A DNA stretch of 64,000 nt, from positions 186,001 to 250,000 of the forward strand of contig JAPWHF010000002.1 of assembly GCA_027214125.1 (NCBI GenBank), given 5' to 3'. A program made the translations under genes and the position numbers. Shown here piece after piece: positions 30,954 through 37,475 of this stretch (its first letter is position 1; each line of letters begins with the position of its first letter). The notes beneath the pieces are model-generated. The model had not been told where the DNA came from, did no database searches, and saw nothing but the letters and a program-made list of their open reading frames with translations. This DNA is from Zoogloeaceae bacterium G21618-S1 (lineage in GTDB: Bacteria; Pseudomonadota; Gammaproteobacteria; Burkholderiales; Rhodocyclaceae).

Positions 30954-31871
30954 ATGACCCAACGCACCATCGCTATCGTTGTGAATGCCCGCTCGGCCAA
31001 CGGCCACGACGACGACCTGCGCGCCCGCATCGAAGCCGCCCTGCCGACCGACGCGGGCCGTCTGCTGTGGTTTCAGCCGCGCAAATCCAGCCGGCTCGAG
31101 CGTGTCTGCCAGCGCGCCGCCACCGTCGCCGATCTGGTCGTGGCGGTCGGCGGCGACGGCACCGTGCGCACCGTGGCCCAGCACGCCCGCGCCCGCGGCA
31201 GGCCGCTGGCCATCATTCCCACCGGCACCTACAACCTCGTTGCCCGCCACCTCGGCATCCCGCTCGACGTGGCCGACGCCGCCCGGCTGGCGATCACCGG
31301 CAGCGCCCGCCCCACCCCCTGCGGCGACATCAACGGCCTGCTGTTCTTCAACCATGCCGCCTTCGGCCTCTACACCCGCATCATCGCCGCACGAGAACGC
31401 CACACCGCCGTACTCGGGCGCAGCCGCGTCACCGCCGTACTCTCGGGCATTGCCACCCTGTTCAACCGCTACCCCATCCTCAAGCTGCGCCTGGCAGTCG
31501 ACGGCGAAACCCAACACTGCCGTGCCAACGCCGTATTCTTCGGCGCCAACCCGCTGCCGCTGGCCGCCGTCGATGCCGAATTCGCCACGCAATGCGACGG
31601 CCACGCGCTCGGGCTGGTGCTGATGCGCCACCAGGGGCGTCGCCATGTGCTCGCCGCCGCCTTCAAGGCGCTGTTCGGGCGGCTGTCCGACGCACCCACC
31701 TTCGAGCTCACCGCCCTGCAAGACACCACCGTCGACATCCTTCGACGCCGGCGGCGCCTGCGTGTCTCGATCGACGGCGAACTCATCAAATGCCGTCTGC
31801 CGCTGCAGTTGAGCTATCAGCCCGACGCGCTACAAGTCGTCCGACCCGATCCGCTAGAATCAAGCGCATGA
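30954..31871 (+). CDS. Diacylglycerol/lipid kinase family protein (YegS-like)
   Basis: 305 residues. DAGK catalytic fold: nucleotide-binding VVAVGGDGTVRTVAQHAR at about residue 63, then LAIIPTGTYNLVARHLGIPLDVADAA, and a beta-sandwich C-terminal domain with LRVSIDGELIKC. Function is transfer of phosphate to a diacylglycerol-like lipid by family; the substrate is open. Stop TGA and the next gene's ATG overlap (ATGA), so it forms an operon with the metallophosphoesterase. Confidence 0.9.
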   Translation: MTQRTIAIVVNARSANGHDDDLRARIEAALPTDAGRLLWFQPRKSSRLERVCQRAATVADLVVAVGGDGTVRTVAQHARARGRPLAIIPTGTYNLVARHLGIPLDVADAARLAITGSARPTPCGDINGLLFFNHAAFGLYTRIIAARERHTAVLGRSRVTAVLSGIATLFNRYPILKLRLAVDGETQHCRANAVFFGANPLPLAAVDAEFATQCDGHALGLVLMRHQGRRHVLAAAFKALFGRLSDAPTFELTALQDTTVDILRRRRRLRVSIDGELIKCRLPLQLSYQPDALQVVRPDPLESSA

Positions 31872-32689
31872 CCCCCGCCTCGCCGGCCCTGCGGCTGGTC
31901 CACCTCTCCGACCTGCATTTCGGCGCCCAGGCGCCCGGCGCCGCACAGCTCCTGCTCGACGCCGTCATCGGCCTGTCGCCACAGCTCACACTGATTACCG
32001 GCGATCTCACCCAGCGCGCCCGCAACAGCCAGTTCATTGCCGCGCGGCAATTCTTCGACCAGCTCCCCGGCGACTGGCTGGCCATCCCCGGCAACCACGA
32101 CATGCCGCTGTTCCGCCCCTGGCACCGCCTGTTCACCCCGCGTGGCCGCTACCGCCGCCACATCGACGATGCCACCACCAGTCACCTCGACTGGCAGCAA
32201 CTGCGCCTCGCACTCATCGACAGTACCAATCCGCTGTCCTGGCGCTCCGGCCGCATCCGCAGCGCCGCTGCGCTCGATGCCGCGCAGTGGCTGGCCGGCG
32301 GCAGCGACGGGCAACTGCGCATCGCCGCCGCCCACCACCCCTTCGCCACCCGCGAGCGCGGCAACAAGGGCGGCATGGCCGGCGCCAACCTCGCCCGCAA
32401 CCTGCTCATCGACGAGGGCGGTGCCGACCTGCTGCTATGGGGACATCTGCATCGCAGCGAAGTGCGGCTGCTGGCATCGGACGCGGGGCGCAACGCCATT
32501 GGTATCGGGGTCGGGTCGCCGACCTCGGGGCGGCATTCTTCAGAGGGGCTGTTTTTTCATCAGCTGGATGTGACGCCGGGGCATGTGCATCTTGTCGTCT
32601 GGCGACGGCATATGGCCGAGAGTTTGTTTTATCCGGTGGGGAATCACCGGTTTACGCGTGGCGACGCGGGGTGGCAGGCGGTGGTTTGA
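31868..32689 (+). CDS. Calcineurin-like metallophosphoesterase
   Basis: 273 residues with the full set of metal-binding motifs: HLSDLHFG, LITGDLTQRA, IPGNHDMPL, AAHHPF and LLWGHLHRSEV. It starts at the ATG at 31868 inside the last codon and stop of the lipid-kinase gene. The family acts on phosphodiesters, phosphomonoesters or phosphoproteins; pairing with a lipid kinase suggests lipid or cyclic-nucleotide metabolism but that is inference. An independent start could also be read further upstream in frame but would lie inside the previous gene. Confidence 0.92.
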   Translation: MTPASPALRLVHLSDLHFGAQAPGAAQLLLDAVIGLSPQLTLITGDLTQRARNSQFIAARQFFDQLPGDWLAIPGNHDMPLFRPWHRLFTPRGRYRRHIDDATTSHLDWQQLRLALIDSTNPLSWRSGRIRSAAALDAAQWLAGGSDGQLRIAAAHHPFATRERGNKGGMAGANLARNLLIDEGGADLLLWGHLHRSEVRLLASDAGRNAIGIGVGSPTSGRHSSEGLFFHQLDVTPGHVHLVVWRRHMAESLFYPVGNHRFTRGDAGWQAVV

Positions 32690-32766: not shown

Positions 32767-32931
32767 TTGGCCGGGTCTCGCCCCGGCGGGCGACCTACTT
32801 TCTTGCTCGTGCAAGAAAGCTAGGCAAAGAAGCACGGCCCACTTTCGCGCCCCTTCGGGGTCCCCACCCTCCGGACGCACCGGGCGGGGTGCTTCGCAAA
32901 CTCGCCCTGCGGGCTCAAACAGCGAAGCCCC
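32767..32931 (+). repeat. Left copy of a structured inverted repeat bracketing the TIR gene
   Basis: Occupies a gene-free stretch (32690-33030). Bases 32767-32794 match the right copy exactly (28 bases, opposite orientation). A hairpin follows (9-bp stem CTTTCTTGC / GCAAGAAAG, 32798-32819), then the shared CAAAGAA, then a variable part, then a second hairpin with arms GCTTCGC and GCGAAGC (32891-32897, 32922-32928) around a 24-base loop that is identical in both copies. The remaining bases show no gene. Confidence 0.75.
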
Positions 32932-33030
32932 TCTTTCCGCCCGGCGCATCCTCCGGTTGGCGCGGCAGAGGGCCAGAAACCCTTACCCACTTCGATTTTC
33001 CCGGCAGCCTGCGAAGATTGCCGTCGAAAA

Positions 33031-33933
33031 CTACAAACCTACTTCATTCGCAGCGAAAGTGAGGGCGGCTGCATAGTCCTTCGACTTTTCGTTGACCAGC
33101 AGTTCTATCAAGTACTTGTGAACGACTTCTGCTTGCTCTTCAGTAATCTCTCTTCCAAGAACGGAACGAACATCGCGCTGCACCTTGGAAGGTGTAACGT
33201 GAAAATCTTGAAAAGCTAAGTCACTCTTAGTTGGGTAACCGACCGATATCTCCGATAGCTGCGCGCCCCGCGGCGCCAAATCCGCAAGAGTCAATGACTT
33301 AGAGCGTTGGACGCGATCACGAATCGACAGACGCGGCAACCTATTTACTAACTCGTTGCTCCAGCCCTCAATCCGCCGCACGCCCTCCAAGACCTCCTCT
33401 AGCAGGTCACGCTCGGAGCGAACGGTCTTGGATGCGCGAGACGTAGGCCTCTTATCTCTTTCCCTGCTCAGCAGCGCTTCTAAATCAGGCCAGCAACGAT
33501 CAAATGCTGTCTTAAGCCGTTCTTCAGGAAGCCCATTCCCTCCTGCAGAACTGCATTCGTTGATATTTCGAAGCAACTTCAGCACATCTTCCCGTTTGAA
33601 CTCCGTATGTTGGAAATTGCCAAGAGGCGGCCTCACATCCGATGGAGTGACATCGAGAAGAAACGTGCAGACGAGTGCATCGCTCTTCAACTTCGACAAC
33701 GCGCCCGCCTCAAAGTGAATCCATGGCGAATCGAGATTATCCGAAGTGAGGCAGATGATTCCAACATTGGCGGCATTCAGTTGCGCGGCAATTCCATCAT
33801 CCCAACGCCGTCCCTTTTCCAAGTCGTCAGAATGCCAAGGTCTCAAACTCTGAATAACCTCGGGAAGCCAGCTGTTGAATGCTTGGGCAACAGCTTTGCT
33901 CCGAGCGCCAGACCAGCTCAAGAAGATGTCCAC
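33031..33933 (-). CDS. TIR-domain protein, candidate antiphage or NADase effector
   Basis: About 300 residues from a GTG at 33933 that follows AAAAAAAGGGGG; an ATG at 33969 is in frame but has no ribosome site. The N-terminal 135 residues are a TIR domain: it starts MDIFLSWSGARSKAVAQAF, has WHSDDLEKGRRWDDGI, GIICLTSDNLDSPW and the glutamate of HFEAGALS (about E75), which matches the catalytic Glu of NAD-cleaving TIRs. After a Lys/Arg/Ser-rich hinge (DKRPTSRASK) comes a helical C-terminal region I do not recognise. Base use is visibly AT-richer than the neighbours, and the gene lies alone between inverted repeats, which suggests horizontal transfer. No Thoeris partner (ThsA or similar) is adjacent. 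Confidence 0.8.
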   Translation of the reverse strand: MDIFLSWSGARSKAVAQAFNSWLPEVIQSLRPWHSDDLEKGRRWDDGIAAQLNAANVGIICLTSDNLDSPWIHFEAGALSKLKSDALVCTFLLDVTPSDVRPPLGNFQHTEFKREDVLKLLRNINECSSAGGNGLPEERLKTAFDRCWPDLEALLSRERDKRPTSRASKTVRSERDLLEEVLEGVRRIEGWSNELVNRLPRLSIRDRVQRSKSLTLADLAPRGAQLSEISVGYPTKSDLAFQDFHVTPSKVQRDVRSVLGREITEEQAEVVHKYLIELLVNEKSKDYAAALTFAANEVGL

Positions 33934-34176
33934 AACGCCCCCTTTTTTTGGAAAAACCGGATCCCGCATTGTAACCCGTAAAGGATGCAACGAGCGTACG
34001 GTGCTATATCCGAAGGGCATTGCACCAATCCAACGGTTGAATGGTGCAGCACCATGGTGGGCGGCAAGCCGCCCACCCTGCGGAGTGGCGCTTTTCCAAA
34101 CGGGCGATGGCGAAGCCGAGCCCGCGCGCCCTTCCCCTTCTGTACCGCCGAACGGAGGCCGTGACCGGCGGGAATT

Positions 34177-34341
34177 GTCGTGTCGCTGTTTGAGCCCGCA
34201 GGGCGAGTTTGCGACACGACCCGCCGGGTGCGGGCGTAGAGAGGGGACCGGCGAAGCCGGCGGTACAGCGGGGGCGTTTCTTTGCGTCCTTTCTTGTCGC
34301 TACAAGAAAGGATGTCGCCCGCCGGGGCGAGACCCGGCCAA
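34177..34341 (-). repeat. Right copy of the structured inverted repeat bracketing the TIR gene
   Basis: Lies in a gene-free stretch (33934-34397). Bases 34314-34341 match the left copy exactly in opposite orientation. The adjoining hairpin is CCTTTCTTGT / ACAAGAAAGG (34288-34311). The second hairpin has arms GTCGTGTCGC and GCGACACGAC (34177-34186, 34211-34220) with the identical 24-base loop at 34187-34210. Both stems differ from the left copy by paired changes. An extra 6-bp outer stem (34167-34172 with 34220-34225) may extend it. Confidence 0.75.
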
Positions 34342-34397: not shown

Positions 34398-37300
34398 CTA
34401 CGACTCGGCCGCGACCGCCGGCCCAGACGCGCCGGCCGCCGCCCGAGTCTTCGGCGCGATGAGCGTATAGACGACCGGCACGACGAACAGCGTCAGCACG
34501 GTGCCAAAAGCGAGCCCGCCAACGATCACCCACCCAATCTGCTGCCGACTCTCGGCCCCCGCGCCGGTGGCCAGCGCGAGCGGAATGGCGCCCAAGATGG
34601 TCGCGCCGGTAGTCATGAGAATCGGCCGCAAGCGCAGCACGGCGGCATCGGTAATGGCAGAAATCAGCGTTTCGCCCCGCTCGCGCAACTGGTTGGCGAA
34701 TTCGACGATGAGGATGCCGTGGCGGGTGATGAGGCCGATGAGGGTGACCAGGCCAATCTGGCTGTAGACGTTGAGCGTGCCGCCCGTCATCCACAGCGCG
34801 GCGAGCGCGCCGGTCATGGACAGGGGAACGGTAAACATGATGGTGAAAGGGTCACGGAAGCTTTCGAACTGGGCCGAGAGCACGAGGTAGATGAACACGA
34901 CGGCGAGAATGAAGGTGAGTAGCAGGCCGCCAGAGCTGATCTTGAACTCGCGGCTCTGGCCGTTGTAGTCGATGGCGTAGTCGGCAGGCAGCACGCGCGC
35001 GGCGATGGCTTCGAGCTCGGTGAGCGCTTCGCCAAGGGCGAAGTCGTTGGCGAGGTTGGCGGTGATGGTGACGGCACGGCGCTGGGCGAAGTGATTGAGC
35101 TCGCGCGGGGCGACGGCTTCATCAACGGTAATGAGGCTGGCGAGCGGGATCATTTCGCCGCTGCTGCCGCGCACATAGATGTCGCTGATGTCGTTGGGCA
35201 CACTGCGATCGGCGGCATCGAGCTGGACGATGACGTCGTATTGCTCGGCGTCGCGCTTGAAGCGCGTCACTTGCCGACCGCCGAGCAGGGTCTCCAGCGT
35301 ACGGCCGATCTGCTCGACCGACACGCCCAGATCAGCCGCCTTGTCGCGGTCGACCTTGACGGTGACCTCAGGCTTGGTGAGTTTGAGGTCGATGTCGGCG
35401 GCGATGAAGCGCGGGTTCTTGGCCATTTCCTGCAACATGGTGTCGGCCACGTCGGCCAGCTCGGTGTAGCTGGCAGAGGTGACGATGACCAGGTTGATGG
35501 GCTGCGAACGCGCGCTCTGGCCGAGCGAGGGTGGCGTGACCGGGAAGGCGCGAATACCCGGCACACTGAGGAAGCCGGGCAAGAGGCTGCGGGCAATCTG
35601 CGGCGACAGCGTGCTGCGCTCGGACCAATCCTTGAGGCCGCCAAAAGAGATGCCTTGCGACACGGTGGGGCTGCCCGAGACCACGAAATAGCGGGTGATG
35701 TCCGGCGTATCGGCGTAGAGCGCTTCGAGCTGGCGAGTGTAGCGGTCCATGTAGTCGATGGTGGCGCCTTCGGGGCCACTGAACACACCAATGATGAAGC
35801 CGCGGTCTTCAACCGGCGAGAGTTCTGACTTGAGCGTGTTGAGCAACCAGCCCGAGGCACCAACCACCGCCGCGAACACCAGCAGCACCAGCCAGCGCGC
35901 CTTGAGCGTGCCCCCCAGGATGCGACGATACCCGTTGGTCATGCCCAGCAGTACGGCTTCGATGGCGTTGTAAACACGGCCGTGGCCGGTCTCGTGCTTG
36001 AGCAGCTTGGAGCACATCATCGGTGACAGGCTGAGTGCGACGAAGCCGGAGACGATCACCGCCCCGGCGAGCGTGAGCGCAAATTCGATGAACAGCTTGC
36101 CGGTGCGACCGGTCATGAAGGCCACCGGGGCGTACACCGCGGCGAGCGTGAGCGTCATGGCCACCACGGCGAAGCCGATTTCCTTGGCGCCGTCGAGCGC
36201 GGCCTGGAAGCGGGTCTTGCCCATTTCGAGGTGGCGGTGAATGTTTTCGAGCACCACGATGGCGTCGTCCACCACCAACCCCACGGCCAGCACCAGCGCC
36301 AGCAAGGTAAGCGTGTTGATGGAGAAACCCATCACCAGCATCAGCGTAAAGGCGCCGATCAGCGACACCGGGATGGTGACCAGCGGCACCAGGGTGGCGC
36401 GCCAGTTGCGCAGGAAGAAGAAGATGATGGCCAGCACCAGCAACACGGCTTCGCCGATGGTCATGAACACCGCGCGGATCGAGCGGTCGATGAACACGGT
36501 GTAGTCGTTGGCGATGGTAACGGTCATGCCCTCGGGCAGGCCTTCGGAGATGCGCGGCAGCTCTTCACGCAGGGCTTTGGACAGATCGAGCGGGTTGGCG
36601 GTGGCCTGCTTGATGAGGCCCAGCGCCACGGCGGGCTTGCCATTGAAGTGTGCCGAGGTGCGCTCGGACGCGGCCGCCACCTCGACCCGGCCCACATCAC
36701 GCAACCGAACCGGATAGCCATCAGCGCCAATCGGCGCGCGCACCACCACCTGTTCGAACTGGCCGACTTCGCTCAAATCGGTGCGCGCCACCACGGCAAA
36801 CTCGCGCGACTGGCTTTCGATCAGGCCGGCCGGCACCTCGACGTTCTGCGCACGCAGGGCGGCTTCGACGTCCTGCACCGTCAGCCCGTAGGCCGACAAC
36901 CGATCGCGGTCGAGCCAGATGCGCATGGCGTACTCGCGGTCGCCAAACACCCGTACATCTGCCGCCCCAGGCAGCGTCTGCAGGCGCGGCTTGACGATGC
37001 GGCTGGCCACGTCGGTCACATCCAGCGGCGAATGGCGGTCGGACGAAAAGGCGAGATAGATGATCGGACTGGCGTCGGCCTCGACCTTGGAGATGACCGG
37101 GTCGTCCACGTCGTCCGGCAGGCGGCGGCGCACCCGCGAGACGCGGTCGCGCACATCGGCGGCGGCGCTGTCGGGGTCGCGCTCGAGGCGGAAGCGCACC
37201 GAGATCTGGCTGGACTCCTGGCGGCTGATCGAGGTGAGCACATCAACGCCCTCGATACCAGCGAGCGAATCTTCCAGCGGCTTGGTGACCTGCGACTCCA

Positions 37301-37475
37301 TAATCGCCGGGCTCGCACCGCTGTAGCGCGTGCTGACCGTCACCACCGGCTCGTCGATTTTCGGATACTCGCGCACCGTGAGGCGCGTGAAGGACACCAG
37401 GCCGACGAGAATCAGCACCAGCGACAACACCGTGGCAAAGACCGGCCGGCGAACGCAGATATCAGAGAGGATCAT
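34398..37475 (-). CDS. RND-family efflux transporter permease (AcrB/MexB-like)
   Basis: Proton-driven inner-membrane pump of 1025 residues, the usual length for HAE1 or heavy-metal RND permeases. Twelve TM helices and two large periplasmic loops are visible; the TM4 proton relay Asp pair appears in VLAVGLVVDDAIVVLENIHRHL. N-terminus MILSDICVRRPVFATVLSLVL is typical. It lies 12 bases downstream of the adaptor gene in one operon. No outer-membrane TolC-like gene or regulator is adjacent, so the outer-membrane partner must be elsewhere. Substrates unknown; residues look more like the multidrug than the copper/silver type. Confidence 0.94.
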   Translation of the reverse strand: MILSDICVRRPVFATVLSLVLILVGLVSFTRLTVREYPKIDEPVVTVSTRYSGASPAIMESQVTKPLEDSLAGIEGVDVLTSISRQESSQISVRFRLERDPDSAAADVRDRVSRVRRRLPDDVDDPVISKVEADASPIIYLAFSSDRHSPLDVTDVASRIVKPRLQTLPGAADVRVFGDREYAMRIWLDRDRLSAYGLTVQDVEAALRAQNVEVPAGLIESQSREFAVVARTDLSEVGQFEQVVVRAPIGADGYPVRLRDVGRVEVAAASERTSAHFNGKPAVALGLIKQATANPLDLSKALREELPRISEGLPEGMTVTIANDYTVFIDRSIRAVFMTIGEAVLLVLAIIFFFLRNWRATLVPLVTIPVSLIGAFTLMLVMGFSINTLTLLALVLAVGLVVDDAIVVLENIHRHLEMGKTRFQAALDGAKEIGFAVVAMTLTLAAVYAPVAFMTGRTGKLFIEFALTLAGAVIVSGFVALSLSPMMCSKLLKHETGHGRVYNAIEAVLLGMTNGYRRILGGTLKARWLVLLVFAAVVGASGWLLNTLKSELSPVEDRGFIIGVFSGPEGATIDYMDRYTRQLEALYADTPDITRYFVVSGSPTVSQGISFGGLKDWSERSTLSPQIARSLLPGFLSVPGIRAFPVTPPSLGQSARSQPINLVIVTSASYTELADVADTMLQEMAKNPRFIAADIDLKLTKPEVTVKVDRDKAADLGVSVEQIGRTLETLLGGRQVTRFKRDAEQYDVIVQLDAADRSVPNDISDIYVRGSSGEMIPLASLITVDEAVAPRELNHFAQRRAVTITANLANDFALGEALTELEAIAARVLPADYAIDYNGQSREFKISSGGLLLTFILAVVFIYLVLSAQFESFRDPFTIMFTVPLSMTGALAALWMTGGTLNVYSQIGLVTLIGLITRHGILIVEFANQLRERGETLISAITDAAVLRLRPILMTTGATILGAIPLALATGAGAESRQQIGWVIVGGLAFGTVLTLFVVPVVYTLIAPKTRAAAGASGPAVAAES

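What the first reader, a model, noticed from the sequence alone, without database searches (positions are those of the whole stretch)
32767..34341. TIR gene island bracketed by inverted structured repeats
Seen directly: one TIR-domain gene (33031-33933) lies alone in a 1.5-kb island whose two ends carry the same repeat in opposite orientation. The shared blocks are 28 identical bases (32767-32794 and 34314-34341) and a 24-base hairpin loop (32898-32921 and 34187-34210), with no transposase in between. The gene is AT-richer than its neighbours. Known: TIR domains with this glutamate cleave NAD in antiphage defence. Inference: the repeats mark a mobile or swap-prone defence slot.
Basis: partly seen in the sequence, partly recalled or inferred. 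Interest (0 to 1): 0.85.

Follow-up and report, generated by a model that had tools for sequence, protein, structure and literature searches.

The report
Paired repeats framing swappable gene slots
In this Denitromonas genome a TIR gene of a kind linked to phage defence sits in a chromosomal slot framed by two long folded repeats, and in four related species the same slot, framed by the same repeats, holds a different gene each time, which points to an undescribed way of swapping single genes.

Summary
The repeats are the unlike ends (LE ~207 bp, RE ~230-240 bp) of one element; the host genome has 13 sites with such ends, 10 of them inverted pairs. The genus is Denitromonas. Many sites are shared among six species. 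Sites A (this window) and B hold cargo in each of the five genomes where both ends were read, with ten low-GC cargoes whose ORFs do not match each other (TIR, HNH, Card1/Csx1-like, CBASS-type HNH, unknowns). Site C is loaded but messier. All 13 complete pairs at A-C exceed 1.2 kb; all 38 read at other sites are 159-719 bp. The TIR gene is in 1 of 10 genus genomes, while its neighbours are conserved. Against its nearest relative at these genes, site B keeps flanks at 95-100% and most of both ends, while cargo is unrelated. Ends fold strongly with compensatory changes and occur in other Rhodocyclales and Comamonadaceae. No clear target duplication and no RAYT link was found. Best reading: immobile, structured-end slots whose cargo is replaced by recombination in or at the ends. 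Slot and turnover are shown; mechanism is inferred. Nine full-text searches listed no description.

The parts
32767..32973 (+). left end (LE): terminal block, hairpin, branched stem with conserved loop
32767..32794 (+). 28-bp terminal block, left copy
32794..32824 (+). outer hairpin of LE
   Evidence: covariation
32898..32921 (+). 24-nt conserved loop AAACTCGCCCTGCGGGCTCAAACA between GCTTCGC/GCGAAGC arms
33031..33933 (-). cargo: TIR-domain protein, 300 aa, GTG start, with the W-x-x-F-E-A/S-G-A-L motif
34053..34080 (.). short inner palindrome next to RE; related blocks occur beside RE at several other loaded sites
34101..34341 (-). right end (RE); inner border CGGGCGATGGCGAAGCCGAGCCCGCG at 34101
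34187..34210 (-). 24-nt conserved loop, right copy, between GTGTCGC/GCGACAC arms
34314..34341 (-). 28-bp terminal block, right copy
31868..32689 (+). conserved left neighbour (PPE): metallophosphoesterase
34398..37475 (-). conserved right neighbour: RND-type (AcrB family) transporter
30954..31871 (+). conserved gene with a DAGK_cat domain, upstream of PPE

Best explanation
The repeats are the left and right ends of a non-autonomous, two-ended element with strongly folding ends. Most copies read are short and empty and stay at shared chromosomal sites. At two sites (A, this window, and B), and less cleanly at a third (C), the element is a cargo slot: LE and RE stay in place while the DNA between them, usually one or a few low-GC genes and sometimes defence-like, is replaced between species. 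The most likely mechanism is recombination with incoming DNA that carries the same ends (from another strain, species or site), with exchange points inside or at the inner edges of LE and RE, plus separate patchy conversion of the end hairpins. Shown: the ends, the pairing, the shared sites, the cargo turnover, the mosaic ends. Inferred: homologous recombination as the enzymology, import of donor DNA, and phage defence by the TIR protein.
For: Same flanks with different cargo: DAGK-PPE-element-RND holds in G000, G001, G004, G006 and G007. Of 28 cargo ORFs of at least 90 aa at A, B and C, none from A or B matches another at E 1e-3; the only two cross-hits lie within site C. Interior GC is 0.44-0.57 at A/B against 0.65-0.70 for flanks. 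Sites shared across six species. All 13 complete pairs at A, B and C are 1,254-6,579 bp; all 38 complete pairs read at other Denitromonas sites are 159-719 bp. Mosaic ends: LE plus ~200 bp is 91% alike between site A of G001 and site B of G006. LEs of many sites are split over the tree, while hot-site LEs cluster (3 label changes against 15.1 in shuffles). B of G000 against G006: flanks 0.95-1.00, LE 0.92-1.00, RE 0.97-1.00 except its hairpin at 0.74, interior 0.30-0.34 next to LE and 0.59-0.80 next to RE.
Against: No exchange was observed directly, no donor molecule was seen, and there was no comparison within one species. RE matched no phage record; LE and RE each matched the same two plasmid records, weakly (LE was not searched in phages). 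Among the five genomes no cargo was found moved intact between A, B and C. Site C also contains a 191-aa gene shared by G004 and G007. Hot REs do not form one group (6 changes against 14.0). At cold sites the ends also differ between species without cargo, so end exchange alone does not explain loading.
Confidence: 0.6

Rival explanations
1. Site-specific exchange: an unidentified recombinase acts on the 28-bp terminal blocks or the folded ends and swaps cassettes, integron-like.
For: The terminal block is the most conserved part; the LE inner border is sharp; ends show stem-preserving changes; the RE hairpin occurs in two types irrespective of site or species.
Against: In B of G000 against G006 the RE body inside the changed hairpin is again 0.97-1.00 identical, so the cargo change does not start at the terminal block. 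No recombinase was seen in the cargo read. I did not search for integrase families.
Confidence: 0.12
2. A transposon family mobilised in trans: loaded elements transpose as whole units, and the empty copies are MITE-like relics.
For: Two-ended anatomy, dispersed copies; site d10 lacks the element in G002, G005, G008 and G009; the copy at site L020 is complete only in G001, with a truncated one in G003.
Against: No clear target duplication: mean longest repeat 2.53 against 2.41, reached by 15 of 200 shuffles, n=81. Sites shared over the genus; different cargo at the same site in different species.
Confidence: 0.12
3. REP/RAYT-type (HUH tyrosine transposase) system, related to the long-TIR elements flanking tyrosine transposases (TIRYT) in PMC3733652.
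For: Structured inverted ends; RAYT genes exist in this genus; GTAG-like palindromes lie inside several empty elements (by eye).
Against: None of 28 distinct Y1/RAYT matches (39 loci from two searches) has LE or RE within about 1.5 kb. G009 has 41 matches to LE but no Y1 or RAYT match.
Confidence: 0.05
4. Passive hot spot: intergenic regions at gene 3' ends tolerate foreign DNA, and the folded repeats are incidental, terminator-like.
For: Elements almost never lie between divergent genes (1 of 78 by a heuristic).
Against: Cargo lies between LE and RE at two sites in five species each, and none of 38 complete pairs at other sites is longer than 719 bp.
Confidence: 0.08

Closest known systems
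Defence hotspots / defence islands (E. coli, Pseudomonas, P2/P4 phages; PMC9122126, PMC10121019 and PMC12629846 seen as search listings with the first lines of their abstracts only)
   Same: fixed chromosomal place with changing, defence-rich content
   Different: here the slot is framed by a conserved pair of folded inverted ends that recur elsewhere in the genome, and the content is often a single gene
MITEs
   Same: short, non-autonomous, inverted ends, many copies
   Different: ends over 200 bp, left and right distinct, no clear target duplication, no parent IS found, cargo
REP/REPIN and RAYT; TIRtron/TIRYT (PMC2817692 passages, PMC3733652 passages and section 16)
   Same: inverted pairs of folding repeats near gene 3' ends
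   Different: REPs are 20-40 bp (PMC3733652); none of 28 Y1/RAYT matches carries these ends
Integron gene cassettes (recalled)
   Same: folding recombination ends and exchangeable small genes
   Different: single slot, inverted rather than direct sites; no integrase seen in the cargo read, none searched for
TIR NADase defence proteins
   Same: TIR_2 domain and conserved glutamate
   Different: single gene; partner and activity unknown

Membership tests
TIR-domain NADase defence proteins | TIR domain | tested here: met
   Pfam TIR_2 34.9 bits against cut-off 28; PADLOC TIR-TM E 1.2e-60; no NCBIfam match
TIR-domain NADase defence proteins | catalytic glutamate | tested here: met
   E75 invariant in 5 of 5 aligned homologues; its catalytic role is recalled
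TIR-domain NADase defence proteins | NAD cleavage and phage protection | not testable with these tools
   needs an assay
MITE | short non-autonomous element with inverted ends | tested here: met
   81 distinct convergent pairs, 56 of them at most 723 bp
MITE | target-site duplication | tested here: not met
   mean longest repeat 2.53 against 2.41, 15 of 200 shuffles as high, n=81; old insertions could have lost it
MITE | ends shared with an autonomous transposon | tested here: inconclusive
   none seen; IS-like ORFs in L017, L039 and L127 (by eye) are not recurrent; 28 Y1/RAYT matches lack the ends; other transposase families not searched
REPIN/RAYT | 20-40 bp REP and a RAYT flanked by the same repeats | tested here: not met
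   ends over 200 bp; none of 28 Y1/RAYT matches has LE or RE nearby
Integron cassette array | IntI integrase with attI/attC | not tested
   no family search for integrases was made
Defence hotspot | same locus, variable content across relatives | tested here: met
   sites A and B, five genomes each
Defence hotspot | content mainly defence systems | tested here: inconclusive
   9 of 31 tested cargo ORFs match PADLOC at E 0.01, several only through a shared nuclease or cyclase domain and one (TniQ) weakly; control 1 of 8 neighbour genes, weak

The most novel reading that the evidence does not exclude
A dedicated cassette-exchange system: folded, oriented LE/RE ends, spread through Rhodocyclales and Comamonadaceae, act as docking arms that let a bacterium replace one small immune gene at a fixed chromosomal slot, with no recombinase encoded in the cassette, and only a 'hot' LE subtype is competent for loading.
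Probability: 0.3. Interest if true: 0.9.

Novelty: new variant of a known kind. Interest (0 to 1): 0.72.

Why it matters
If right, the ends are a sequence tag that points straight at fast-changing, often single-gene cargo in many environmental bacteria. Most of the cargo ORFs tested matched no defence family, and many matched no family at all, so the tag could serve to find new defence genes. It also makes a standing question testable: how single defence genes enter and leave fixed chromosomal places without integrases or transposases of their own.

Tried and rejected
TIR gene as a core gene: rejected. Chance repeats: rejected. Rfam family: none in the window at gathering score. tRNA-associated integration: no tRNA in the window. 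Direct target duplication: none clear. Solved-structure relatives of the TIR protein by sequence: none at E 0.1. RAYT/Y1 mobilisation: PF01797 proved a poor detector, since it scored a RAYT below its cut-off that NF047646 names clearly, so I repeated the search with NF047646; its 28 matches include the 11, and none has LE or RE nearby. Consensus RNA fold over 27 ends: only the outer hairpins are convincing and several long-range pairs look forced; the stem beside the loop was therefore tested directly. An order-wide search gave only 4 of 399 genomes with the exact 24-mer, so the family is patchy at that stringency. An empty-site test in Variovorax failed on a parameter. Site C is kept apart because a shared gene lies inside it. 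My first count of pairs (77) removed duplicates by left flank only; one search recounts by element sequence (81) and is used throughout.

Full report
WHAT IS THERE. The window lies in a 4.39-Mb, 66-contig genome. Its genus is Denitromonas: two genus mates, G006 and G004, have contigs whose lengths equal those of named D. halophila SFB-3 and D. ohlonensis SFB-1 records (487,768 and 550,552 bases; not needed). They belong to two longer ends: the left end LE at 32767-32973 and the right end RE at 34101-34341 on the other strand. LE and RE are 77% alike in the window over 199 bp and can be told apart.

COPY CENSUS. LE has 25 BLAST matches in the host genome, itself included. I fetched 14 regions; one match (L013) is only 27 bp and is no element. 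The remaining 13 sites are 9 LE-RE pairs, one LE-LE inverted pair (L002) and three single LEs (L010-L012); one of the paired sites (L003) has a third end. With a terminal-block search (up to 3 mismatches) over 173 loci (L001-L074 without L013, L120-L139, L158-L237), distinct neighbouring blocks are convergent 81 times, divergent 7 and in tandem 14, of 102. In the 80 listed named loci alone, with a stricter block, the counts are 24 convergent, 4 tandem, 0 divergent. The 81 convergent pairs fall into two sizes: 56 of 159-723 bp and 25 of 1,108-6,579 bp.

SHARED SITES. The 73 regions with ends form 14 groups by flanking sequence, 13 of them found in at least three genomes; the largest group holds several regions of the same genome and may merge two sites. 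Groups A (this window), B and C are loaded: their 13 complete pairs are 1,254-6,579 bp. The 38 complete pairs in other groups are 159-719 bp, which leaves at most about 280 bp between the ends. One 1.5-kb interior elsewhere (L039, partial end) holds ORFs that look like an IS3-type transposase by eye. Single-ended sites d8 and d9 carry length variation next to the end.

CARGO TURNOVER. At A the order DAGK-PPE-element-RND transporter is conserved in G000, G001, G004, G006 and G007; in G003 the site is split by contig ends. The cargoes are a TIR protein, a bPH-like membrane protein (below Pfam cut-off), a 207-aa protein without match, an HNH nuclease and a 334-aa protein without match. At B they are a zinc-ribbon protein with Card1/Csx1-like nuclease similarity (Pfam below cut-off, PADLOC E 4.9e-12), several small ORFs, a 335-aa protein without match, a CBASS/SAVED-type HNH protein and a 291-aa protein without match. 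No A or B cargo ORF matches another (28 ORFs of at least 90 aa including site C). At the DNA level some non-coding blocks beside the ends are shared, for example 88 bp at 95% between A and B of G001. Interior GC is 0.44-0.57 against 0.65-0.70 in flanks. The TIR gene is in 1 of 10 genus genomes. In 399 genomes of the order four others have a relative at E 1e-15, 39-44% identical; no facing pair of ends lies within about 1.5 kb of those four, only isolated loose matches at two.

WHERE EXCHANGE HAPPENS. G006 is the nearest relative of G000 at the RND gene (98%) and DAGK (96%), though not at PPE (93.8% against 94.2% for G001). At B their flanks are 0.95-1.00 identical up to the element on both sides. 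LE is 1.00, 0.92, 0.93 and 0.96 from outside inward and the interior then 0.34 and 0.30. RE is 0.97 in its terminal 30 nt, 0.74 in its hairpin, 0.97 and 1.00 in its body, and then 0.59 and 0.80 where palindromic blocks are shared. So flanks and most of the ends were kept, cargo was replaced, and the RE hairpin changed as a separate patch. Over all pairs compared the RE hairpin occurs in two types irrespective of site or species. LE plus about 200 bp is shared at 91% between A of G001 and B of G006, in front of different genes. On a tree of 63 LEs many sites are split, but hot-site LEs cluster: 3 changes against 15.1 in shuffles, 14 of 17 under one branch with 97/96 support; for 55 REs it is 6 against 14.0 (the bootstrap had not settled). 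The ends are mosaic, and loaded sites use a distinct LE subtype.

STRUCTURE OF THE ENDS. As single strands LE and RE fold better than all 200 shuffles (z -3.81 and -4.78). Over 27 ends from several genera 7 of 22 predicted pairs keep pairing through double changes, mainly in the outer hairpin. The stem beside the conserved loop is at least 6 bp in 94 of 103 ends, with 16 different stem sequences; mean length 7.98 against 5.52 when sides are shuffled (only ends that have the loop were taken).

BREADTH. The exact 24-mer block is in 13 of 121 genomes of the family and 4 of 399 drawn evenly over the order. Loaded pairs in other genera carry another TIR protein (L121), a CBASS-TIR-like protein (L126), a nucleotide cyclase (L130) and genes without defence match. 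PADLOC matches at E 0.01: 9 of 31 cargo ORFs that I chose (1 of 1, 4 of 10, 4 of 10, 0 of 10), several only through a shared nuclease or cyclase domain and one (TniQ in L125) weak. Eight neighbour genes gave one weak match. This suggests a lean to defence; it does not prove one.

MECHANISM. No clear target duplication: 2.53 against 2.41, 15 of 200 shuffles as high. Elements sit at gene 3' ends: 32 convergent, 45 co-directional, 1 divergent of 78 by a GC3 heuristic. None of 28 Y1/RAYT matches has the ends nearby, and G009, with 41 LE matches, has no RAYT match. RE matched no phage record, and LE and RE matched two plasmid records weakly. I therefore favour exchange by recombination in or at the ends of immobile slots. 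A dedicated recombinase is not excluded. What puts new cargo between the ends in the first place is unknown.

LITERATURE. Nine full-text searches listed no paper that I could recognise as describing these ends. Read in part: PMC3733652 (passages and section 16), PMC2817692 (passages), PMC10969869 (two passages). The Polaromonas JS666 genome paper, cited in PMC10969869 for MITEs, is not held, so an earlier description of this element under another name cannot be excluded.

Noticed in passing
L015, L016, L042, L011, L064, L030, L043, L054, just inside LE: In 8 of 17 aligned left ends a ~65-bp block follows LE and ends in roughly CATATACTTCTTCGTCATGGC, perhaps a promoter for forward cargo; absent from the three reversed cargoes at A but also from several forward ones.
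   Followed up: no
G009:C1:2070208-2071313 and similar places: The divergent variant in G009 forms tandem runs of two elements.
   Followed up: no
L142:2131-2625: At the site that holds an LE/RE element in G001 (L020), G004 carries a RAYT gene (NF047646) beside GTAGGGCGGATAAGC palindromes; G000 and G006 have RAYT matches at the same place.
   Followed up: partly
L010, L021, L036, L046, L057: Site d8 has a single LE in five species with about 240-790 bp of variable DNA on its inner side.
   Followed up: partly
L204:3894-4258, L160:3757-4175: In Rhizobacter the ends are closer to one long palindrome with a short centre.
   Followed up: no
L130:2434-3837: A loaded pair in another genus carries a Guanylate_cyc-domain nucleotide cyclase with Pycsar-cyclase similarity.
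   Followed up: no
L003, L019, L049, L058: Site d3 has a third end about 1.2-1.3 kb away in the opposite sense.
   Followed up: no
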